Assembly (NCBI GenBank): GCA_003170295.1
Contig: PNAJ01000022.1
Coordinates: 62,001 to 126,000 of the forward strand
From: Bryobacterales bacterium
GTDB lineage: Bacteria; Acidobacteriota; Terriglobia; Bryobacterales; Bryobacteraceae
Direction of reading: 5' to 3'
Length of the DNA stretch: 64,000 bases
In this document: positions 7,963 through 43,815 of the stretch, one piece after another
How positions within the stretch are numbered: position 1 is the first letter of the stretch
Layout of the letters: each line of letters opens with the position of its first letter
Notes under the pieces: generated by a model
The model's database searches: none
Told to the model about the DNA's origin: nothing
What the model saw: only the letters and a program-made list of their open reading frames with translations
Position numbers and translations under genes: made by a program

Positions 7963-9947
7963 TCGCCGATCCACTCCAGGAACTGCCCGTACCACAACAC
8001 GCTATTTTGCGGCTTCGAAATCCAATGCCCCTCGTCAGGAAACAGCACCATTTTCGACGGCACCTTTTGCGTCTGGAGCGCCGTGAACAATTGCATCCCC
8101 TGGCCCACCGGAACCCGGTAATCGAGCTCGCCGTGCAGCACTAAGGTGGGCGTTTTGAAGTCCTTAGCAAAGTAACTGGGGGACCACTTCTCATACATGT
8201 CCGGATTGTCCCACGGCATGCCTTTGAACTCCCATTGCGGAAACCACAACTCCTCGGTTTCTCCCGCCATGCTGCGCAGATCGAAAACTCCTGCATGTGA
8301 AATAAGTGCTTTGAATCGAGTAGTATGCCCCAGCAGCCAGTCGACCATATAGCCTCCGTACGAACCACCCGCCGCCGCCATTCGGTCCGCATCCGCGTAG
8401 GGAAGCGCGGCCACATGATCGACCACCGCCATGATGTCTTCGTAGACCTTGCCGCCCCAGTCGCCGTTGATATCGTCGATGAACTTTTGCCCGTACCCCG
8501 TCGACCCGCGAGGGTTCGGCATCACCACCAAATACCCCGCCGATGCAAACACTTGCGGGTTCCAGCGATAGCTCCACGTCTCGCCCCACGCGCCTTGGGG
8601 ACCGCCGTGAATCAGAAACAGCACCGGGTATTTTTTCAACGGCGAAAAGTCCGGCGGCTTTACGATAAACGTTTGAATGCTATCGACCCATATTTCTTCG
8701 AGCGGCCGCACCGTGGAGGATGAAAGCGCCAAATCGTTGAAATGTGTGAGCGCAACGCCGGTGCCGGAGCCCGCCGTGGCGCGAAAAATCTCCACTGGTT
8801 TCGATCCGCTCTGCTGAGTGTAAATCATCGTCTCGCCGTCGGGCGTGAATTGAACATCATCGAGCGTCGATGCGCCGGAAATGATGGGACGCAAGCCGCC
8901 GCCTGACGCTGCAATCATCTGCAACCCAGTGCGGCCGCGATCTTCCGAGGTAAATACCAGCCTTTCCGAATCCGGCAGCCAGGTCATGCCTCCCACCCAA
9001 CGATCAAGGCCCTCCGTTAAGTTTGTAGTTTTTCCGCTGGCGCGATCGAGCACCATTAACCGCCAGCGATCGCTTTCATACCCGGCGCGAAACTGGGAGC
9101 GAAACGCGAGCATTTTTCCGTCGGGCGAATAGAGCGGCGAATTGTCCGCGCCCAGTCCGATGGTGATTTTGTGAATTTCTCCGCCTGCGATGGGAACGGT
9201 GTAGATATCGGAATTCGTGCTGGTGGCGGGATCCGGATCGACGTTCATCACGAACGCAACTTCAATTGAATCAGGCGAAATCGTGTAATCCTCGGGACCG
9301 CCGAGCGAAAACGGCGGGACATCGTAAGGGCCCGGCGTCAAATCCTTCACGTTCGAACCATCGGCATCGACTACTAACAAATGTTGGCGGCGCTTGGTTT
9401 GCCAAGCGGTCCAATGCCGGTAGAGCAGCGACGTGTAAACGCGCGCCTTGACCTTGTTCTGAGCCTCGGCGTCGATCTTATCCTTATTACACCGGTCGTC
9501 CGCGCCGCATTCGGGGTAGACGCTGGACTCAAAAACAATCTTTTTTCCATCGGGCGAAAGGAGCAGGCCGCCGGCCTCGGTAGAAAGCCGCGTGATCTGA
9601 CGTGCGTGACCGCCGGCGTTATCCATCACCCAAACCTGCGACGAGCCGCTCCTATCCGAAATGAAATAAATCAGTTCCGCATCGGGGGACCAGCGCGGGC
9701 GCTCATTATCGTTGCCTTCGTGGGTCAACTGGCGAGGCGCCGAGCCATCGATGCCCACTACGTAAATTTGCTTCGGCTTGACGTTCCTCTCGACATCCAC
9801 CGTTTGCACCGTGAACGCAACTTGCTTGCCGTTGGGAGAGAGCGCTGGCTCACTGACGCGCGATAAGCCGAGCATCATTTGAACGTCGAAGGTCTGCCGT
9901 TGCGCAAACAGGGCGCCAGATGTAAACAAAACCAGTACAAACCGCAT
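7941..9947 (-). CDS. S9 family prolyl oligopeptidase (acylaminoacyl-peptidase type)
   Basis: 668 residues with a signal peptide (MRFVLVLFTSGALFAQ), so it is exported. Residues 25-400 form a beta-propeller with TolB/WD40-like blades ('SPDGKKIVFES', 'SPDAELIYFISD', 'SPDGKMLAFRS'). The C-terminal alpha/beta hydrolase domain has the oxyanion region 'FLIHGGPQGAWGE', nucleophile motif GGSYGGYM (S529), acid D609 in 'HGELDYRVP' and H641 in 'DEGHWI'. All three catalytic residues are present. It should cleave short peptides in the periplasm. It is transcribed divergently from the YVTN gene across about 50 bp and is followed by the beta-helix lipoprotein. Confidence 0.93.
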   Translation of the reverse strand: MRFVLVLFTSGALFAQRQTFDVQMMLGLSRVSEPALSPNGKQVAFTVQTVDVERNVKPKQIYVVGIDGSAPRQLTHEGNDNERPRWSPDAELIYFISDRSGSSQVWVMDNAGGHARQITRLSTEAGGLLLSPDGKKIVFESSVYPECGADDRCNKDKIDAEAQNKVKARVYTSLLYRHWTAWQTKRRQHLLVVDADGSNVKDLTPGPYDVPPFSLGGPEDYTISPDSIEVAFVMNVDPDPATSTNSDIYTVPIAGGEIHKITIGLGADNSPLYSPDGKMLAFRSQFRAGYESDRWRLMVLDRASGKTTNLTEGLDRWVGGMTWLPDSERLVFTSEDRGRTGLQMIAASGGGLRPIISGASTLDDVQFTPDGETMIYTQQSGSKPVEIFRATAGSGTGVALTHFNDLALSSSTVRPLEEIWVDSIQTFIVKPPDFSPLKKYPVLFLIHGGPQGAWGETWSYRWNPQVFASAGYLVVMPNPRGSTGYGQKFIDDINGDWGGKVYEDIMAVVDHVAALPYADADRMAAAGGSYGGYMVDWLLGHTTRFKALISHAGVFDLRSMAGETEELWFPQWEFKGMPWDNPDMYEKWSPSYFAKDFKTPTLVLHGELDYRVPVGQGMQLFTALQTQKVPSKMVLFPDEGHWISKPQNSVLWYGQFLEWIGEWLKKPY

Positions 9948-9997
9948 GGACTTTCATTTTAGCGCGCTGCTGGAAGCATGATGCACAATAGAAAGAT

Positions 9998-10969
9998 ATG
10001 AAAACGATAGCGGCGGCACTGCTCGTGGGCGCCCATATTCTGGCGGCGCAAACGGCCTCTTTGATTGTGTTGAATAAAGAGGACAAGACGCTTGCCATTG
10101 TCGAGCCTTCCAGCAATGTCTTCTTCGCGAAGATTCCGACCGGGGAAGGTCCGCACGAAGTTGCCGTTTCTACCGATGGGCGATTCGCATTCGTTGGGAA
10201 CTACGGCAGCGGGCAAACGCCGGGCAGCACGATTTCCGTCATCGATCTGGTCGCACGAAAAGAGGTGCGGCGCGTGGATGTGAGCCCTCTGCGGCGTCCG
10301 CACGGCATCGCGTTTAACAACGGAAAAGTCTATTTCACCGCCGAGGTAAACAAAATCGTCGCGCGCTACGATCCCGCGACCAATCAGATCGACTGGATGA
10401 TCGGCACGGGGCAGAACAGCACGCACATGGTGATGCTGAACAAGGACGGCAGCAAGATTTTCACGGCGAATATTGGCTCCGACAGCATATCGATATTCGA
10501 ACGCGGGACGAATCCGATGAACTGGAACCAAACGGTGATCCCGGTGGGGAAGGGTCCCGAGGGCATGGATATTTCGCCGGACGGCACGGAGTTGTGGACC
10601 GCGCATTCGCGCGACGGCGGAGTTTCCATTATCGACATCGAGGCGAAGAAGGTGACAGAGACGTTGAGCCTCGGGACCAAGCGGTCGAATCGTTTGAAAT
10701 TTACGCCCGACGGGAAGATGGTGCTGATCACCGATCTGGACGCGGGACATCTGATCGTGCTGGACCGGGCTTCACGCAAAGAGGTGAAGCGCTTTGCGAT
10801 GGGAAAAACTCCGGAGGGCATTCTGATTACACCCGATGGATCCCGCGCCTACGTCGGCGTGGCGGGTGACAACCAAGTGGCGATTGTCGATCTGAACACA
10901 CTGGAAGTTATCGAACGAATCGCCACTGGCGCCGGCCCTGATGGGATGGCGTGGGCAGTACGGAAATAA
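9998..10969 (+). CDS. Secreted YVTN-type beta-propeller protein
   Basis: 323 residues with a signal peptide (MKTIAAALLVGAHILAAQ). The mature protein is a chain of about seven blades of roughly 42 residues, with the recurring pattern 'P.G.GP.....S.DG...' and 'I.ViDl....'. Examples are 'IPTGEGPHEVAVSTDGRFAF', 'ISPDGTELWTAHSRDGG' and 'TPDGSRAYVGVAGDN'. These YVTN/lactonase-like propellers are usually extracellular binding proteins; no catalytic function can be assigned. Its TAA is immediately followed by the ATG of the M20 peptidase gene, so the two are coupled. Confidence 0.85.
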   Translation: MKTIAAALLVGAHILAAQTASLIVLNKEDKTLAIVEPSSNVFFAKIPTGEGPHEVAVSTDGRFAFVGNYGSGQTPGSTISVIDLVARKEVRRVDVSPLRRPHGIAFNNGKVYFTAEVNKIVARYDPATNQIDWMIGTGQNSTHMVMLNKDGSKIFTANIGSDSISIFERGTNPMNWNQTVIPVGKGPEGMDISPDGTELWTAHSRDGGVSIIDIEAKKVTETLSLGTKRSNRLKFTPDGKMVLITDLDAGHLIVLDRASRKEVKRFAMGKTPEGILITPDGSRAYVGVAGDNQVAIVDLNTLEVIERIATGAGPDGMAWAVRK

Positions 10970-12196
10970 ATGAAACATTATTGTCTATACCTGACGATCG
11001 CGGCGCTTGCGAGTGCGCAGGATGCTGTGAGGCTCGCGGAGGATCCGACGGTGAAGGCTGCGCTCGACGCGGCGAAGCGCAACGAAGCGCACTTCATCGA
11101 CGAGCAGGCGCGGTTCTGCGAAATCGCTGCGCCGCCATTTAAAGAAGAGGCGCGCGGCAAAGAGTTCGAGCGGCTGTTCAAGAGTCTGGGCCTGGAAAAC
11201 GTCCGGATCGATAAGGCAGGCAACGTGATCGGCGTACGGAGTGGAGCCGCAGCGCATCCGAACCTGGTGTTCGCGGCGCATCTGGACACGGTGTTTCCGC
11301 CAGAAACCAACGTGAAAGTAACGCGCGAAGGAACGGTGCTGAAAGGACCCGGCATCGGCGACGATTGCCGGGGGCTCGCGGTCATGCTGGGCGTGATCCA
11401 AGCGTTAAAGGACGGCAACGTGAAGACACCTGGCACCATCACGTTTGTCGCCGACACGGGCGAAGAAGGGCTCGGCGATCTGCGCGGCACTAAGAATCTT
11501 TTTGCCGATAGCCTGAAGGGGCAAATCGATAAATTTATTTCCGTGGACGGCACGGGCTTGAGCATCACCAACATCGGCGTGGGAAGCTATCGTTACCGCG
11601 TGACATTCAAGGGGCCCGGCGGGCATAGCTTCGGCGCTTTCGGCATGGCCAATCCGATTCAGGCGATGGGTCGCGCGATTGCGAAGATCGACGCGTTCGA
11701 AGTGCCCACGAATCCGAAAACGACGTTCAACGTGGGACGCGTGGGAGGCGGAACGTCGGTGAATGCGATTCCGTTTGAAGCGTGGATGGAGGTCGATATG
11801 CGGTCCTCCGATAAAACCTCGCTCGAAGCGCTGCATGCGAAGTTCAAGAACGCGGTGCAGGAGGCGGTGGACGAGGAGAATAAGCGATGGACCGGTCGCG
11901 GCGCTGTTTCGGTGTCACCGGATCTGGTGGGCTATAGGCCTGCGGGAAGCACGTCTGCCGATTCCGCGATCGTGATTACGGCGCTGGCGGTGTCTAAGAT
12001 TTTTGGGCACAAAGAGGGCCTCCGCGAAGGGTCGACGGATTCCAATGTCCCCATGAATGCGGGAATTCCCGCAATCACGATTGGCGGGGGAGGCATCGGA
12101 ACGGGCGCGCATGCGTTGACCGAGGCGTTCGATACGAAAGATTCGTGGTTGGGAACGCAGAGAGCGCTGTTGCTGGCAGTGGCGCTGGCGCGGTAG
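10970..12196 (+). CDS. Secreted M20 family metallopeptidase (peptidase T-like)
   Basis: 408 residues with a short signal peptide (cleavage near ASAQ, residue 17). Two-zinc M20 motifs are intact: 'FAAHLDTV' (H104, D106), 'GPGIGDDCRG' (bridging Asp at 131-132), and 'ADTGEEGLGDL' (E165/E166). 'GPGGHSFGAFGMANP' marks the dimerisation lid domain, and 'GGGGIGTGAHALTEAF' carries the last His ligand. It is a di-zinc exo- or dipeptidase, here probably periplasmic. Its start abuts the stop of the propeller gene, and the HEAT-repeat gene follows 13 bp downstream. The three look like one operon for exported proteins. Confidence 0.92.
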   Translation: MKHYCLYLTIAALASAQDAVRLAEDPTVKAALDAAKRNEAHFIDEQARFCEIAAPPFKEEARGKEFERLFKSLGLENVRIDKAGNVIGVRSGAAAHPNLVFAAHLDTVFPPETNVKVTREGTVLKGPGIGDDCRGLAVMLGVIQALKDGNVKTPGTITFVADTGEEGLGDLRGTKNLFADSLKGQIDKFISVDGTGLSITNIGVGSYRYRVTFKGPGGHSFGAFGMANPIQAMGRAIAKIDAFEVPTNPKTTFNVGRVGGGTSVNAIPFEAWMEVDMRSSDKTSLEALHAKFKNAVQEAVDEENKRWTGRGAVSVSPDLVGYRPAGSTSADSAIVITALAVSKIFGHKEGLREGSTDSNVPMNAGIPAITIGGGGIGTGAHALTEAFDTKDSWLGTQRALLLAVALAR

Positions 12197-35100: not shown

Positions 35101-35167
35101 CTGCGAATGCAGAAGCGACGTTAGAATCGACGGGAACATTGCTGTTTAACCGATTCGCGTAGCAAAA

Positions 35168-35544
35168 CTCCCTCTGATTTGAGAGTACGCTAAGAAAAGA
35201 AAAACCCCTTTCATGCAATGTCGGAAAGCTCGCCAAGGAAAGAGATAAAAGTAGGGCCAGAGTGGTTTCGGCGGAGCAGCAGACCACAGGACGGTCTCGT
35301 CCGCCTCGGCTTCCCCCTCAGCCACCGCCCGCGTGACGTCTTCCGAGCCGTGACCACAGGGAGCGGTGCTCAACAAGTGATGCTTTCCTGGTGGTGCAGG
35401 TGCGGACCGATTGGCAATCTGTCCATCCGGTGCGTTCATAGAACCGCGACCAACGGGAGCGGTCAAAGCCCCAGTTTTCGAAAGCGCCGCCACGGACCAT
35501 CGGCATCCCCCACCGAACCCCGACCGTCAGGAAGGGGACAGGCG
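35168..35544. repeat. Long dispersed repeat, copy A (about 377 bp)
   Basis: It starts at ctgatttgagagtacgctaa and ends at gtcaggaaggggacaggcg, with most bases identical to copy B at 35834-36222. It contains an internal 24-bp REP-like core (35343-35366) and several inverted GC-rich arms (for example accgcgaccaacgggagcgg). It carries no convincing protein: all reading frames across it are short and differ between copies. The 170 bp to 35718 holds a fragment, gcttcagcttgcagcgtcgg, that recurs inverted at 43706-43747. I see no gene between 34840 and 36274 apart from the fragments listed. Confidence 0.75.
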
Positions 35545-35718
35545 GTCAAAGCACGTCCCGTCCGGGTGGCGCGAGCTTCAGCTTGCAGCGTCGGCTTCAG
35601 CCGACGTCTCTGAATTCAACCGCCTAAGTCCGTTCTTTATCCTTATCGTTTCCAGTCGCCAGCAGCTGTAAAACTCCGCGTGAAACAGTTTGACGTCACC
35701 TGAGGAATACTCGACGAT

Positions 35719-35859
35719 ATGTCTGTCCAGATCACGAGGCGGTTAAAGCCCGAAGAGGAGGAGGTCCTCCGCAAGCTCAGCACCACCGCAATACGACATT
35801 TCCTGCAGGAAAATCAAAAGAGCTTTGCCAAGGCTCCTTCTGATTTGAGAGTACGCTAA
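35719..35859 (+). pseudogene. Short 5' gene fragment interrupted by repeat copy B
   Basis: A 46-codon frame starts MSVQITRRLKPEEEEVLRKL and continues as STTAIRHFLQENQKSFA, then enters repeat copy B at codon 39 and stops. The first 38 residues look like a genuine helical protein start, while the rest is repeat sequence. I do not recognise the family. The likely reading is a gene truncated by the insertion of the repeat. Confidence 0.35.
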
Positions 35860-36222
35860 GAAAAGCAGAACCCATTTCACGCAAAGTTGCAAATCTCGCC
35901 AAGGAAAAGAGATAAAGGAGGGCCAGAGTGGTTTCGGCGGGAGCACCAGACCACAGGACGGTCTCGTCCGTCGGTTTCCTTCTCAGCCAACGCCCGCGTG
36001 ACGTCTTCCGAGCCGTGACCGCAGGGAGCGGTGCTCAACAAGTGATGCTTTCCTTGTGGTGCAGGTGCGGACCGAATGGCAATCGGTCCATCCGAGCGAA
36101 ATCCCGGACGGTTTAAAGAACCGCGACCAACGGGAGCGGTCAAAGCCCCAGTTTTCGAGAGCGCCGCCACGAGACCATCGGCATCCCCCACCGAACCCCG
36201 ACCGTCAGGAAGGGGACAGGCG
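35834..36222. repeat. Long dispersed repeat, copy B (about 389 bp)
   Basis: Direct repeat of copy A, 666-678 bp downstream, with an insertion of about 12 bp near 36095. It includes the REP-like core at 36008-36031. It ends 52 bp before the ATG of the nuclease-STAND gene, so any promoter for that gene probably lies within or right after the repeat. Confidence 0.75.
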
Positions 36223-36274: not shown

Positions 36275-38677
36275 ATGATCCGTTATAGGCTAGACGATCT
36301 CGGCTGGTACCAATTTGAATGGCTTGTGCAGGCTCTTCTGAAGGACCACCTAGGGATCGGCGTCGAGTCATGGGGCGGCCACGGCGACAACGGACGCGAC
36401 GCTTGGTGTAGCGAGCCACTGCACTTTCCGGCCAAGGAATTGAAATCGACTGGTCCGTTTCTTTTTCAAGCGAAATTCGTTGAGGGCGCCAACGCGGCAG
36501 GGGCTAAACCATTCCCACGGTTGATTGCTGCCGTGAAGGCCGAAATGGTCACAACACACCGACGCAGAACCCAATCCAAGGAAATTCAAAAATGCAGGTA
36601 CTATGTACTGATTACCAATTCCTTGATCTCTCCGCAGGGTCGCGACAAGGTACGAGAGGAGATAGAAAAGACCTTCCCAAACACGGTGGTCCACTGCCTA
36701 GGTGGCAACGACATCTGCGATCTTCTCGACGCCAATCCCACGCTGAAGCGATCCTTCCCACAGCTACTCTCCCTTCAGGATCTTGACGTCCTCCTAGCAA
36801 ATGTGGTTAATCGTGACGTCGTGGAGCGGAGTTCGGCAGCAATATCCTACGCCCGGGATCTCCCAGCCGTGTTCGTGCCTACGGATGCTTACGCGCAAGC
36901 TTGGGAAGTCCTGAAGAAACATCATTTTGTAGTCTTGGAAGGGCCACCGGAAATGGGCAAGAGCGCGATTGCCTGGATGGTGGCTTTCGCGCAACTGGCG
37001 AATTCATGGGAAGCGATCGTATGCGATGATCCGCGTGATTTCTTTCGGTCGCTTCGCGCAGATTCATCGCAGATCTTTATCGCAGACGACGCATTCGGCC
37101 GGACCGAATACGATCCATCGAGGGGTGCCCGCTGGGAAGCCCAATTGCATCGAGTGTTCGCACGCCTCGGAAATAAGACCTGGCTCATCTGGACTAGCCG
37201 AAAGCACATACTTGAGCGTGCCCGAAAGCAAATGGATGTTCAAGGTACTGCGCATCGCTTTCCTCAACCTGGCGAAGTATTAGTGAGCGCGGGGCGCCTG
37301 ACGGTCCGCGACAAGGCGCTAATCCTCTACAGGCATTCCAAGCACACTTTGAGCGGTGCTGACGCTAGGAATTTCGTAAAGAAGCATGCGGTTCAGATCG
37401 TCTCCAACGATGCCTTTACTCCGGAGCGCATCCGCCTTTTCATCTCCGACGGCGTCCCGCAATTGCTGTTGGATGCGCGGGGGCAAGACGATCCGAAGGC
37501 GCTAGCGGAAAGAATCAGCAAGGAGATTCAGAACCCAACGGACAGAATGCGCAAGTGCTTCCACGCTTTGCAGCTAAAACATCAATGGATGTTGCTGGCA
37601 CTACTCGAGAGCGAGCACTACTGCACAACCGAGGAACTGCTATCGAGGTATCAAAGCCAATATAACGACGCGGACGCAAGGCCAAAAGAGGACCTTGAGG
37701 AGCTGACCGAGGCGTTTGTCACGATCAAAGGAACAACACAGCGGTGGGTTGAGTGGATACACCCAAGCTATCGCGACCTGGTTATTGAGCAACTACGGGA
37801 CGGTGGTTCTCTGAAATCCGAGTTTTTACACCGCATGAACGTGACCGGCGTGAAATTAGCCCTGTCCGACACCGGCGGATCTACAGGCAAGCGGAGATTC
37901 CCACTCGTCACGTCGTCAAAGGACTGGGACGTCCTGCGCGATCGGACTTTACAACTGGCGGAGTCGTGCAGCATCGCGCAACTCACCGAGCTGTTGACGG
38001 TTTTAGCGAATGCGATGGGTGGTTCTGCGGCCCGTGAGCTGGCATTGTCGGAGATTCTCCGGAGCACGTGCCAAGCCGTTCGCGCGAAATGGGACGTGGA
38101 GCAAACTGAACTCGATGCCGCGGCAATTGAGGCCTTCTCTGCGGCAACTGAGTACACGTCTCCCATGGTGCCAATGCCAGCACTAGAGGCTACATGGCGC
38201 GCAGCGGTTTCGCGCCTGCGATCGCAAGCCTCGGAACCCGACCTCCCATTCCTTTTTTGGCCCGAACCGCTCGACGACTTCTTAGCGATCGTCCAGGCGA
38301 TTAAAGAGTCAGAGCCACGGCTTCTCCATCGAATGGGTTTCCCAAACGCTCTTGACGAAGACCTCAAGACGCTTCTCGAAGAGATCGACGCAGAATTGCG
38401 CGACCCTCAATCCTACGACGACAGAGACTCGTACGACGGCGAAGCTAGCGCTTCGTTCGGACTTGCAACCTCGCTCAACCGTCTCTGTGCCGTAGCGCCC
38501 AGCATCGAGGGCGCAGCGACAGAAACAATTAAGAACCTTACCGTAAATGCCAATCGATGCCGTCAAAAGTATGCGGAACTGGAGGAAGACGAAGACGAGG
38601 ATGATTCTTCGTACGAGAGCCATCGCTCAAGTTCAGACGCTGCATTCGATATCAATTCTGTTTTCGTAGACTTGTAG
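36275..38677 (+). CDS. Restriction-endonuclease-like / nSTAND NTPase fusion, candidate antiphage defence protein
   Basis: 800 residues from the ATG at 36275, preceded by AAGGCGGAG. Residues 1-165 look like a Mrr/PD-(D/E)xK nuclease: 'YQFEWLVQALLKDHLG', 'GGHGDNGRDAW' (D42), 'FLFQAKF' (QxK, K67) and 'YYVLITN'. Residues 195-420 form a STAND-type NTPase: 'AYAQAWEVLKKHHFVVLEGP', Walker A GPPEMGKS (223-230), Walker B 'SQIFIADDAFG' (267-272). The remaining 400 residues are mostly helical and could be the sensor, ending in a very acidic stretch (EEDEDEDDSS). The order nuclease, STAND, helical sensor is that of Avs-type antiviral ATPases, but I cannot name a subfamily. GC content looks lower than in flanking genes. 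It is flanked by repeats and toxin-antitoxin relics. Confidence 0.75.
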   Translation: MIRYRLDDLGWYQFEWLVQALLKDHLGIGVESWGGHGDNGRDAWCSEPLHFPAKELKSTGPFLFQAKFVEGANAAGAKPFPRLIAAVKAEMVTTHRRRTQSKEIQKCRYYVLITNSLISPQGRDKVREEIEKTFPNTVVHCLGGNDICDLLDANPTLKRSFPQLLSLQDLDVLLANVVNRDVVERSSAAISYARDLPAVFVPTDAYAQAWEVLKKHHFVVLEGPPEMGKSAIAWMVAFAQLANSWEAIVCDDPRDFFRSLRADSSQIFIADDAFGRTEYDPSRGARWEAQLHRVFARLGNKTWLIWTSRKHILERARKQMDVQGTAHRFPQPGEVLVSAGRLTVRDKALILYRHSKHTLSGADARNFVKKHAVQIVSNDAFTPERIRLFISDGVPQLLLDARGQDDPKALAERISKEIQNPTDRMRKCFHALQLKHQWMLLALLESEHYCTTEELLSRYQSQYNDADARPKEDLEELTEAFVTIKGTTQRWVEWIHPSYRDLVIEQLRDGGSLKSEFLHRMNVTGVKLALSDTGGSTGKRRFPLVTSSKDWDVLRDRTLQLAESCSIAQLTELLTVLANAMGGSAARELALSEILRSTCQAVRAKWDVEQTELDAAAIEAFSAATEYTSPMVPMPALEATWRAAVSRLRSQASEPDLPFLFWPEPLDDFLAIVQAIKESEPRLLHRMGFPNALDEDLKTLLEEIDAELRDPQSYDDRDSYDGEASASFGLATSLNRLCAVAPSIEGAATETIKNLTVNANRCRQKYAELEEDEDEDDSSYESHRSSSDAAFDINSVFVDL

Positions 38678-38682
38678 CTAGG

Positions 38683-38829
38683 AAAGCCCACAGCCGCGTC
38701 AAAGAGACGCGCGAGCTGATGGAAGAAGCCATCGAGTTCGAAATCGAGGGCATGCGCCTTCATGGCGAAACCGTGCCGAAACCCTCCTCGCTCGCCGAGA
38801 TGCTCGAAATTGCCCCAGTGGGCGGATAA
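38683..38829 (+). pseudogene. HicB antitoxin C-terminal remnant
   Basis: The frame KAHSRVKETRELMEEAIEFE, IEGMRLHGETVPKPSSLAEM, LEIAPVGG then TAA (38827-38829) is the C-terminal half of a HicB-family antitoxin ('..EAIefhIEGLre.Ge.vPePss'). The N-terminal half is absent: homology starts six bases after the stop of the nuclease-STAND gene. This looks like an old hicB gene cut by arrival of that gene. Confidence 0.6.
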
Positions 38830-43459: not shown

Positions 43460-43735
43460 ATGACGATCACGGTTGACATCAAGCCAGAGGTGAAGGCTGA
43501 ACTCGCGCGTCAAGCTGCTGTACGAGGACAAGCGATTGAGGCGCACGTGGCGAGCCTGCTCGAAGAGGCTGCCCATCTTTCGTCTGACGCGAACCGGCCT
43601 CTCTTCGATAAGGAAAGGGCGCAGGCTGCAGGCGCCCGCATTCGCGAGTTGCGCGAAGGAGTCAGTCTCGGAGGTCTGACGATCCGCGAATTGATCGACG
43701 AAGGACGTCCGGCTGAAGCCGACGCTGCAAGCTGA
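43460..43735 (+). CDS. Orphan antitoxin-like protein with its 3' end in repeat copy C
   Basis: 91 residues, 'MTITVDIKPEVKAELARQAA', 'RGQAIEAHVASLLEEAAHLS'. This is a ribbon-helix-helix type start (strand then helix-turn-helix), seen in VapB/ParD-like antitoxins. The middle (RAQAAGARIRELREGVSLGG, LTIRELIDEGR) is the toxin-binding tail typical of VapB proteins encoded before a PIN toxin. The last ten or so codons (PAEADAAS and stop) lie in sequence shared with 35567-35605, so the original end and the expected PIN gene were probably replaced by the repeat. A strong GAGGAGGG precedes the ATG. Confidence 0.6.
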   Translation: MTITVDIKPEVKAELARQAAVRGQAIEAHVASLLEEAAHLSSDANRPLFDKERAQAAGARIRELREGVSLGGLTIRELIDEGRPAEADAAS

Positions 43736-43815
43736 AGCTCGCGCCACCCTGCTACGGAGATCGGCCTGTCCGCTCCCTGACGGTCGCGGTTCGGTGCGGG
43801 GTTTGAGCGGGACGT
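43690..43815. repeat. Inverted partial copy C of the 35.2-kb repeat
   Basis: Read on the minus strand it has, in order, caccgaacc, cgaccgtcaggga, ggacaggc and then ggtggcgcgagcttcagctt plus gcagcgtcggcttcagccg, the same order as 35505-35610. It overlaps the end of the orphan antitoxin gene. Confidence 0.65.

What the first reader, a model, noticed from the sequence alone, without database searches (positions are those of the whole stretch)
36275..38677. Nuclease-STAND NTPase fusion in a repeat-flanked accessory island
The protein joins a Mrr/PD-(D/E)xK-like N-terminus (D42, QxK at 65-67), a STAND-type NTPase (GPPEMGKS, IFIADD) and a long helical C-terminus. That order matches the general logic of Avs-type antiviral STAND proteins: the effector is held off until the sensor region meets a phage product. 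The gene has lower GC than its neighbours and sits between long repeats, a RelE remnant and a HicB remnant. I do not recognise its sensor region, so the trigger may be new. The defence role is inference from architecture.
Basis: partly seen in the sequence, partly recalled or inferred. Interest (0 to 1): 0.75.

Follow-up and report, generated by a model that had tools for sequence, protein, structure and literature searches.

The report
Nuclease-armed STAND immune switch gene
A bacterium carries one gene for a probable virus alarm protein, built from a DNA-cutting domain, an ATP-driven switch and a variable helical tail; it belongs to an already catalogued but apparently untested family of defence candidates, and one branch of its relatives has lost the cutting residues.

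Summary
The protein is real: 800 aa, window 36275-38677 (+). Its N-terminus is an Mrr-type nuclease domain (Mrr_cat just over its cut-off; D42 and Q65-x-K67 present). Its middle is an nSTAND3 NTPase (E 2.5e-33). Its C-terminus is all-helical, with no Pfam match and no significant Foldseek match. Foldseek's best match to the whole model is Avs4; plant NLRs, CED-4 and Avs5 match the switch. It matches PADLOC's candidate PDC-S73, as do all 25 members of the close alignment. The Mrr_cat-STAND-repeat layout is in print (PMC9122126, passage). So: a new member of a known kind, most likely an abortive-infection switch; I found no test. The island claims are weaker: both long repeats lie upstream and the window's neighbours are ordinary. 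The gene is rare (1 of 297 genomes of the phylum, its own); some relatives sit beside CBASS, methylase/HNH or AAA_13 genes. The unexpected point is one actinobacterial, mostly Thermoleophilia, clade: 14 proteins lack Q65 and K67, and 13 of them D42, by one inferred loss, yet keep the Walker motifs and the C-terminal region. Two of these are split into two overlapping frames at the switch/sensor boundary.

The parts
36275..38677 (+). Whole gene: Mrr nuclease - nSTAND3 NTPase - helical C-terminus, 800 aa
36275..36769 (+). Residues 1-165: Mrr_cat PD-(D/E)xK-type nuclease domain; D42, Q65, K67, with E15, D38 and G40 also invariant in the 44 rows chosen for D42/Q65/K67
36872..37342 (+). Residues 200-356: nSTAND3 NTPase core (Walker A GPPEMGKS, Walker B IFIADD, conserved R309)
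37343..37735 (+). Residues 357-487: mostly helical arm after the NTPase core; covered by alignments with NLR, CED-4 and Avs5 structures
37736..38674 (+). Residues 488-800: all-helical C-terminal region, presumed sensor; begins where L034, L036 and L038 are split
35163..36222 (.). Two upstream direct repeats (35163-35544, 35829-36222; 89% alike) and, between them at 35564-35603, a 40-nt element with many copies in the genome; not part of the system
38680..38829 (+). HicB-like antitoxin remnant, weak match, probably unrelated

Best explanation
A single-gene, NLR-like anti-invader switch. At rest the nSTAND3 module holds the Mrr-type nuclease inactive. When the C-terminal helical region binds an invader-derived signal, ATP binding drives oligomerisation and brings nuclease domains together, so that DNA is cut and infection is aborted. 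Shown here: domain identity, conserved catalytic and Walker residues, predicted fold, patchy distribution, and defence-type neighbours in some relatives. Inferred: autoinhibition, oligomerisation, DNA cutting, the trigger and the antiphage role.
For: Pfam nSTAND3 E 2.5e-33 and Mrr_cat 21.9 bits against a cut-off of 21. Mrr_cat is matched by 40 of 44 N-terminal domains at E <= 0.01; these 44 (window included) were chosen for D42, Q65 and K67, so of the invariant E15/D38/G40/D42/Q65/K67 only E15, D38 and G40 are independent. Foldseek top hit Avs4 with phage portal, E 2.3e-7. The NTPase region aligns with plant NLRs at Z up to 18.1, CED-4 at 15.8 and EfAvs5 at 11.4. PADLOC PDC-S73 is matched by 25 of 25 A2 members, window included. 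Residues 545-800 are the most divergent part (14-29% identity against 41-51% in the NTPase, nine intact members). Found in 1 of 297 genomes of the phylum, its own. Neighbours: CBASS cyclase and Cap15 1.2 kb from L018; Eco57I-type methylase, HNH and AlbA_2/REase-like genes in line with L019; AAA_13 ATPases beside distant relatives. In print: Avs5 carries nSTAND3 and needs its Walker A motif (PMC12931631, passages).
Against: I saw no experiment on this family in the listings. In the full-length close set Mrr_cat reaches E <= 0.001 in only 1 of 25, the window protein. The window's own neighbours are ordinary metabolic and transport genes. The NTPase fold matches are not special to immune proteins: archaeal ATPases (Z 16.4, 15.6), ORC (14.0) and proteasome ATPases (up to 11.7) are in the same list. 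The C-terminus is short (about 310 aa) and has no Pfam repeat match, unlike the large repeat sensors recalled for Avs1-4. One clade has dropped the nuclease residues. Neighbour proteins were picked by eye, with no matched control; in L020 one of the two scanned neighbours is a 5'-nucleotidase.
Confidence: 0.72

Rival explanations
1. A type IV-like restriction enzyme: the Mrr domain cuts modified or foreign DNA that the protein recognises directly, with the NTPase giving DNA-dependent control (as in McrBC or Mrr) rather than protein-triggered abortive infection.
For: The nuclease belongs to Mrr_cat; L019 sits in line with methylase/HNH genes; the records of several plasmid homologues call them 'restriction endonuclease'; the weak PDB profile hits of A1 include McrB's P-loop (E 5e-4, 41 positions).
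Against: The NTPase is nSTAND3 and NLR-like in fold; Pfam found no DNA-recognition domain in the C-terminus.
Confidence: 0.13
2. A STAND signalling protein with a non-defence role (regulation or stress response) in which the nuclease fold is a scaffold.
For: 14 actinobacterial proteins lack QxK yet keep the Walker motifs; the window's neighbourhood is ordinary; the two Solirubrobacter loci share a neighbour gene cluster, also seen in L062.
Against: The catalytic residues are intact in the window protein and in 73 of 88 scorable rows of the tree, window included; the gene is rare even in the class that holds L036, 3 of 199 genomes, which does not fit a core function.
Confidence: 0.08
3. A plasmid- or transposon-exclusion or addiction factor rather than an antiphage one.
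For: 34 plasmid records carry relatives, 19 of them predicted conjugative or mobilizable; an IrrE-like peptidase and a DUF4411 gene lie beside L013.
Against: No plasmid gene was seen beside the window copy; defence genes are often carried on plasmids anyway (general knowledge).
Confidence: 0.07

Closest known systems
PDC-S73 (PADLOC-DB 2.0.0, PDLC05079), phage-defence candidate
   Same: Profile matched at E 2.4e-28 (residues 107-507), and by 25 of 25 members of A2, window included.
   Different: The match covers positions 85-487 of 752; the window's C-terminus falls outside it. Plasmid relatives are only about 21-28% identical to the window protein.
Avs4 (AVAST type 4), PDB 8dgf
   Same: Top fold match to the whole model; same order nuclease, STAND, sensor (that Avs4's effector is Mrr-like is recalled).
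   Different: 1534 against 800 residues, 10% identity, TM-score 0.30 on the query; no Avs-named model in PADLOC at E <= 1.
Avs5 (SIR2-STAND), PDB 9jap and 9nc9; PMC12931631
   Same: Same NTPase family, nSTAND3 (PF20720, stated in the paper's passages); fold Z 11.4 over 326 residues, 5.5 A, for 9jap.
   Different: Avs5 carries a Sir2 NADase in place of the Mrr nuclease; only the switch is shared.
Mrr_cat-STAND-repeat proteins of E. coli P4 satellites (PMC9122126, passage)
   Same: The paper names the layout: STAND NTPase with C-terminal repeats in which TIR can be replaced by SIR2 or by Mrr_cat or BpuSI_N.
   Different: Not compared here by sequence; the paper's supplementary table was not read, and which STAND family it has was not seen.

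Membership tests
nSTAND3 NTPases (PF20720) | Profile match above the curated cut-off, with Walker A and B | tested here: met
   115.4 bits, cut-off 27.2; 25 of 25 A2 members match; K229 and D271/D272 conserved
Mrr-type PD-(D/E)xK nucleases (PF04471) | Profile match above the curated cut-off | tested here: met
   21.9 bits (whole protein) and 26.5 bits (domain alone), cut-off 21
Mrr-type PD-(D/E)xK nucleases (PF04471) | Catalytic D...QxK present | tested here: met
   D42, Q65, K67; that these are the catalytic residues of the family is recalled
Mrr-type PD-(D/E)xK nucleases (PF04471) | Metal-dependent DNA cleavage | not testable with these tools
   needs biochemistry
PDC-S73 | HMM match to PDLC05079 | tested here: met
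   E 2.4e-28
PDC-S73 | PADLOC's own coverage and score thresholds | tested here: inconclusive
   only 403 of 752 profile positions are spanned; the thresholds were not available
Avs1-Avs4 | Sequence profile of Avs1-4 | tested here: inconclusive
   no Avs-named model at E <= 1 in PADLOC; that the library holds all Avs models is recalled, not checked
Avs1-Avs4 | Effector - STAND - sensor order in one chain | tested here: met
   that the C-terminus is a sensor is inferred
Avs1-Avs4 | Activation by terminase or portal | not testable with these tools
   needs co-expression
Avs5 | N-terminal Sir2 domain | tested here: not met
   Mrr_cat there, no Sir2 match at E <= 1

The most novel reading that the evidence does not exclude
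The family is a modular receptor in which the nuclease is optional. In Actinomycetota a clade of full-length receptors whose nuclease domain has lost its catalytic residues was kept, and two members are encoded as two overlapping frames (effector-side switch plus sensor). These would be bacterial 'helper' or regulator STAND proteins that sense invasion but signal through another effector. The window protein's C-terminal region would be a sensor not yet seen in a solved structure.
Probability: 0.2. Interest if true: 0.6.

Novelty: new member of a known kind. Interest (0 to 1): 0.42.

Why it matters
It places a widely scattered family (rows from Acidobacteriota, Verrucomicrobiota, Myxococcota, Pseudomonadota, Actinomycetota, Bacteroidota and Bacillota among others) between Avs4 (nuclease effector) and Avs5 (nSTAND3 switch), and gives a compact 800-aa candidate for testing. 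The dead-nuclease clade offers a natural separation of sensing and killing: if those proteins still respond to infection, they must work through something other than their own nuclease.

Tried and rejected
Solved-structure sequence searches with the protein, the full profile and the nuclease profile gave chance or generic P-loop hits; McrB's P-loop was the best (E 5e-4, 41 positions). NCBIfam gave none. PDC-S73 over 199 genomes of the phylum gave a match in 58, the window's own included. The other 57 best matches are short pieces at E 4e-11 to 1e-3, mostly around the P-loop, a few (G125, G136, G051, G150) at the profile's start; 7 of 14 control genomes also rang and only five candidates a genome were scored, so I did not use that count. 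nSTAND3 in the own genome: 7 matches, 2 over the cut-off, the window gene and an 824-aa frame on another contig; 14 of 14 controls rang, 7 over the cut-off. The C-terminal model gave no Foldseek match at E <= 0.001 and VIA Z of at most 10.4, to unrelated helical proteins, within what the tool says helical models give. Paper searches: PDC-S73 and nSTAND with Mrr found nothing; TrlF was off topic; passages of PMC7159879 and PMC12724215 name other systems. That the gene is core in Thermoleophilia is not supported (3 of 199 genomes, the centre genome included). An empty site in same-genus genomes was sought: the amine oxidase is present in 10 of 21 genomes searched, own included; in the four same-genus loci fetched, the deacetylase follows in two and none of the left-hand window genes was found, so the site is a synteny break, not a clean insertion. 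The left-hand ABC permease has only 30-34% relatives in 4 other genomes. Dropped or unscorable rows: L038b is an out-of-frame artefact (it counts among the 15 'lost' rows; I report 14); L021, L022 and L037 could not be scored in the tree; L012, L023 and the C-terminal pieces L023b, L034b and L036b are partial. The Foldseek library of viral proteins was not used.

Full report
What is there. The open frame 36275-38677 (+) encodes 800 aa. An upstream in-frame GTG (36056) would give 873 aa, but that part lies in a repeat, and L011 and L012 align from residue 1, L011 beginning with the same MIRYRLD. Pfam finds nSTAND3 at residues 200-356 (115.4 bits, cut-off 27.2) and Mrr_cat at 7-128 (21.9 bits, cut-off 21). 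The Mrr_cat match is only just over its cut-off in the whole protein; it rises to 26.5 bits for the domain alone. It is shared by 40 of 44 N-terminal domains at E <= 0.01 (window included), those 44 having been chosen for D42, Q65 and K67. Beyond these three, E15, D38 and G40 are invariant in the 44. In the full-length close set A2 Mrr_cat reached E <= 0.001 in only 1 of 25, the window protein.

Structure. An AlphaFold2 model from 57 sequences has mean pLDDT 87.9 and pTM 0.73. The first domain has the helix-strand-strand-helix-strand order expected of a PD-(D/E)xK core (my reading of the DSSP line). Foldseek against the PDB ranks Avs4 bound to a phage portal first (E 2.3e-7, TM-score 0.30 on the query, so the overall placement of domains does not superpose), then human SAMD9, a plant NLR resistosome (6j5t) and NLRC4. 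VIA-align puts residues about 190-545 on plant NLRs (Z up to 18.1), CED-4 (15.8) and EfAvs5 (Z 11.4, 326 residues, 5.5 A). Archaeal ATPases (16.4, 15.6), ORC (14.0) and proteasome ATPases (up to 11.7) are in the same list, so this shows the NTPase fold, not the function. The C-terminal 313 residues folded alone give an all-helical model (pLDDT 86.1). Pfam matches 0 of 24 members of that region; Foldseek gives nothing at E <= 0.001 and VIA only middling helical matches. I do not claim a new fold.

Family. Relatives: 34 plasmid records and 1 phage record; 239 confirmed stretches in genome contigs, of which 79 loci were kept; 8 viral contigs. The close set A2 (window plus 24 rows) is 26-43% identical to the window protein; L021 and L022 lack N-terminal parts there. 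L012 is 76% identical over residues 1-339, where its frame ends. PADLOC's PDC-S73 matches 25 of 25 of A2. In the window's phylum, which the tool does not name, the gene was found in 1 of 297 genomes, the window's own, which holds one copy. Among nine intact close members with a complete N-terminus (L011, L013-L020) identity to the window protein is 45-50% in the nuclease, 41-51% in the NTPase, 36-46% in the arm and 14-29% in residues 545-800; the more distant L031 has 40, 31, 27 and 11%. That is the pattern expected of a diversifying sensor, though relaxed constraint would look alike.

The dead-nuclease clade. In the alignment, 14 proteins from 13 loci (L024-L030, two of L032, L033, L035, L036, L038, L039) have neither Q65 nor K67. 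At position 42, 13 of them lack D (four have E: the two of L032, L035 and L036); L027 keeps a D. All other rows that cover these positions in frame have D, Q and K. On a tree of residues 196-545, which leaves out the nuclease columns, 73 of 91 rows are intact, 15 are lost and 3 unscorable; one of the 15 is an out-of-frame artefact (L038b). The lost rows lie in one group of 16 (with L037, unscorable) with SH-aLRT 100, and intact against lost needs one change. It is a quick tree: 25 of 85 inner branches have support under 80. All are Actinomycetota there, and most titles say Thermoleophilia or Solirubrobacterales; L018, also titled Thermoleophilia, is intact. The 14 keep Walker K229 and D271/D272. 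Twelve of them have 39-46% identity to the window in the NTPase but only 18-29% in the nuclease domain. None of 10 of their N-terminal domains matches any Pfam family at E <= 0.01. The gene is rare in the class of L036's genome too: 3 of 199 genomes, one of them that genome. In L036 and L038 the protein is split just before the conserved W-x-HPSWRD motif into two frames that overlap as ATGA; L034, outside the clade, has stops at the same junction. The second frame of L038 has one further TAG inside the matched stretch. I read this as a natural domain boundary near residue 488, but decay is not excluded, and L034 is from a metagenome bin.

Context. For 14 close loci outside the dead clade I listed neighbours within 6 kb and picked proteins of five of them by eye for profile scans. 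L018 has a CBASS cyclase and a Cap15 effector 1.2 kb downstream. L019 has, in line and on the same strand, an Eco57I-type methylase (DrmMI and type IIG profiles), an HNH endonuclease, an AlbA_2 gene with a restriction-endonuclease-like domain, and a DUF2726-zinc-ribbon gene directly before the STAND gene. L020, from the same assembly, has a 684-aa LmuB-like protein but also a 5'-nucleotidase. L013 has an IrrE-like peptidase and a DUF4411 gene ending 125 nt upstream; the latter has no PADLOC match. L031 has an NB-ARC/TPR protein 5 kb away. The other nine loci were not scanned, several looked ordinary, and there was no control set. In the distant branch an SMC/AAA_13-type gene cluster occurs in 13 loci, in 12 of them with a gap under 1 kb to the STAND gene by my crude gene calls; several of these loci are near-identical, so they are not independent. 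Of seven such neighbours scanned (six from the cluster and L006's TrlF gene), five match AAA_13 above its cut-off. The window's own neighbours are P450, ABC transporter, GYD, amine oxidase, deacetylase and DinB genes.

Mechanism and novelty. Published STAND immune proteins have an N-terminal effector, a central NTPase and a C-terminal sensor, and Avs1-4 kill by nuclease activity (PMC12931631, passages). That paper also reports that Walker A changes abolish Avs5 immunity and that Avs5 carries nSTAND3. PMC9122126 (passages) reports STAND proteins whose effector is Mrr_cat. With these, the best reading is an autoinhibited nuclease released on sensing an invader. Every step after domain identity is inference. 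The kind is known, the candidate family is catalogued, and this is a new, distant member; the dead-nuclease clade is the part that would surprise a specialist. That I know of no description of it rests only on the listings, in an open-access library; none of them searched for a dead-nuclease clade as such.

Noticed in passing
L024-L030, L032, L033, L035, L036, L038, L039: 14 actinobacterial proteins of one clade lack Q65 and K67 (13 also D42) of the nuclease but keep the Walker motifs.
   Followed up: partly
L036:10200-10290, L038:10330-10420, L034:10430-10540: Gene split at the switch/sensor boundary; ATGA overlap of two frames in both Solirubrobacter loci, in-frame stops in L034.
   Followed up: partly
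L032:1317-3464 and 8992-11211: Two copies of the dead-nuclease gene about 5.5 kb apart on one contig.
   Followed up: no
L008, L043-L045, L053, L055, L056, L065, L081: SMC/AAA_13-type ATPase gene within about 120 nt of the Mrr-nSTAND3 gene on the same strand; a possible two-gene unit; several loci are near-identical.
   Followed up: partly
L019:1786-9001: Methylase, HNH, AlbA_2/REase-like and DUF2726-zinc-ribbon genes in line before the STAND gene; looks like a composite restriction locus.
   Followed up: partly
L010 (MT836015.1): A faecal 'phage' record carries a gene 99.4% identical to that of a Pseudomonas plasmid.
   Followed up: no
window 35564-35603 and 43710-43749: 40-nt element with many copies in the genome; at least 26 of 44 matching places cover only this element.
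   Followed up: partly
L099 (own genome, contig C112): A second nSTAND3 match just over the cut-off (28.5 bits) in an 824-aa frame elsewhere in the genome.
   Followed up: no
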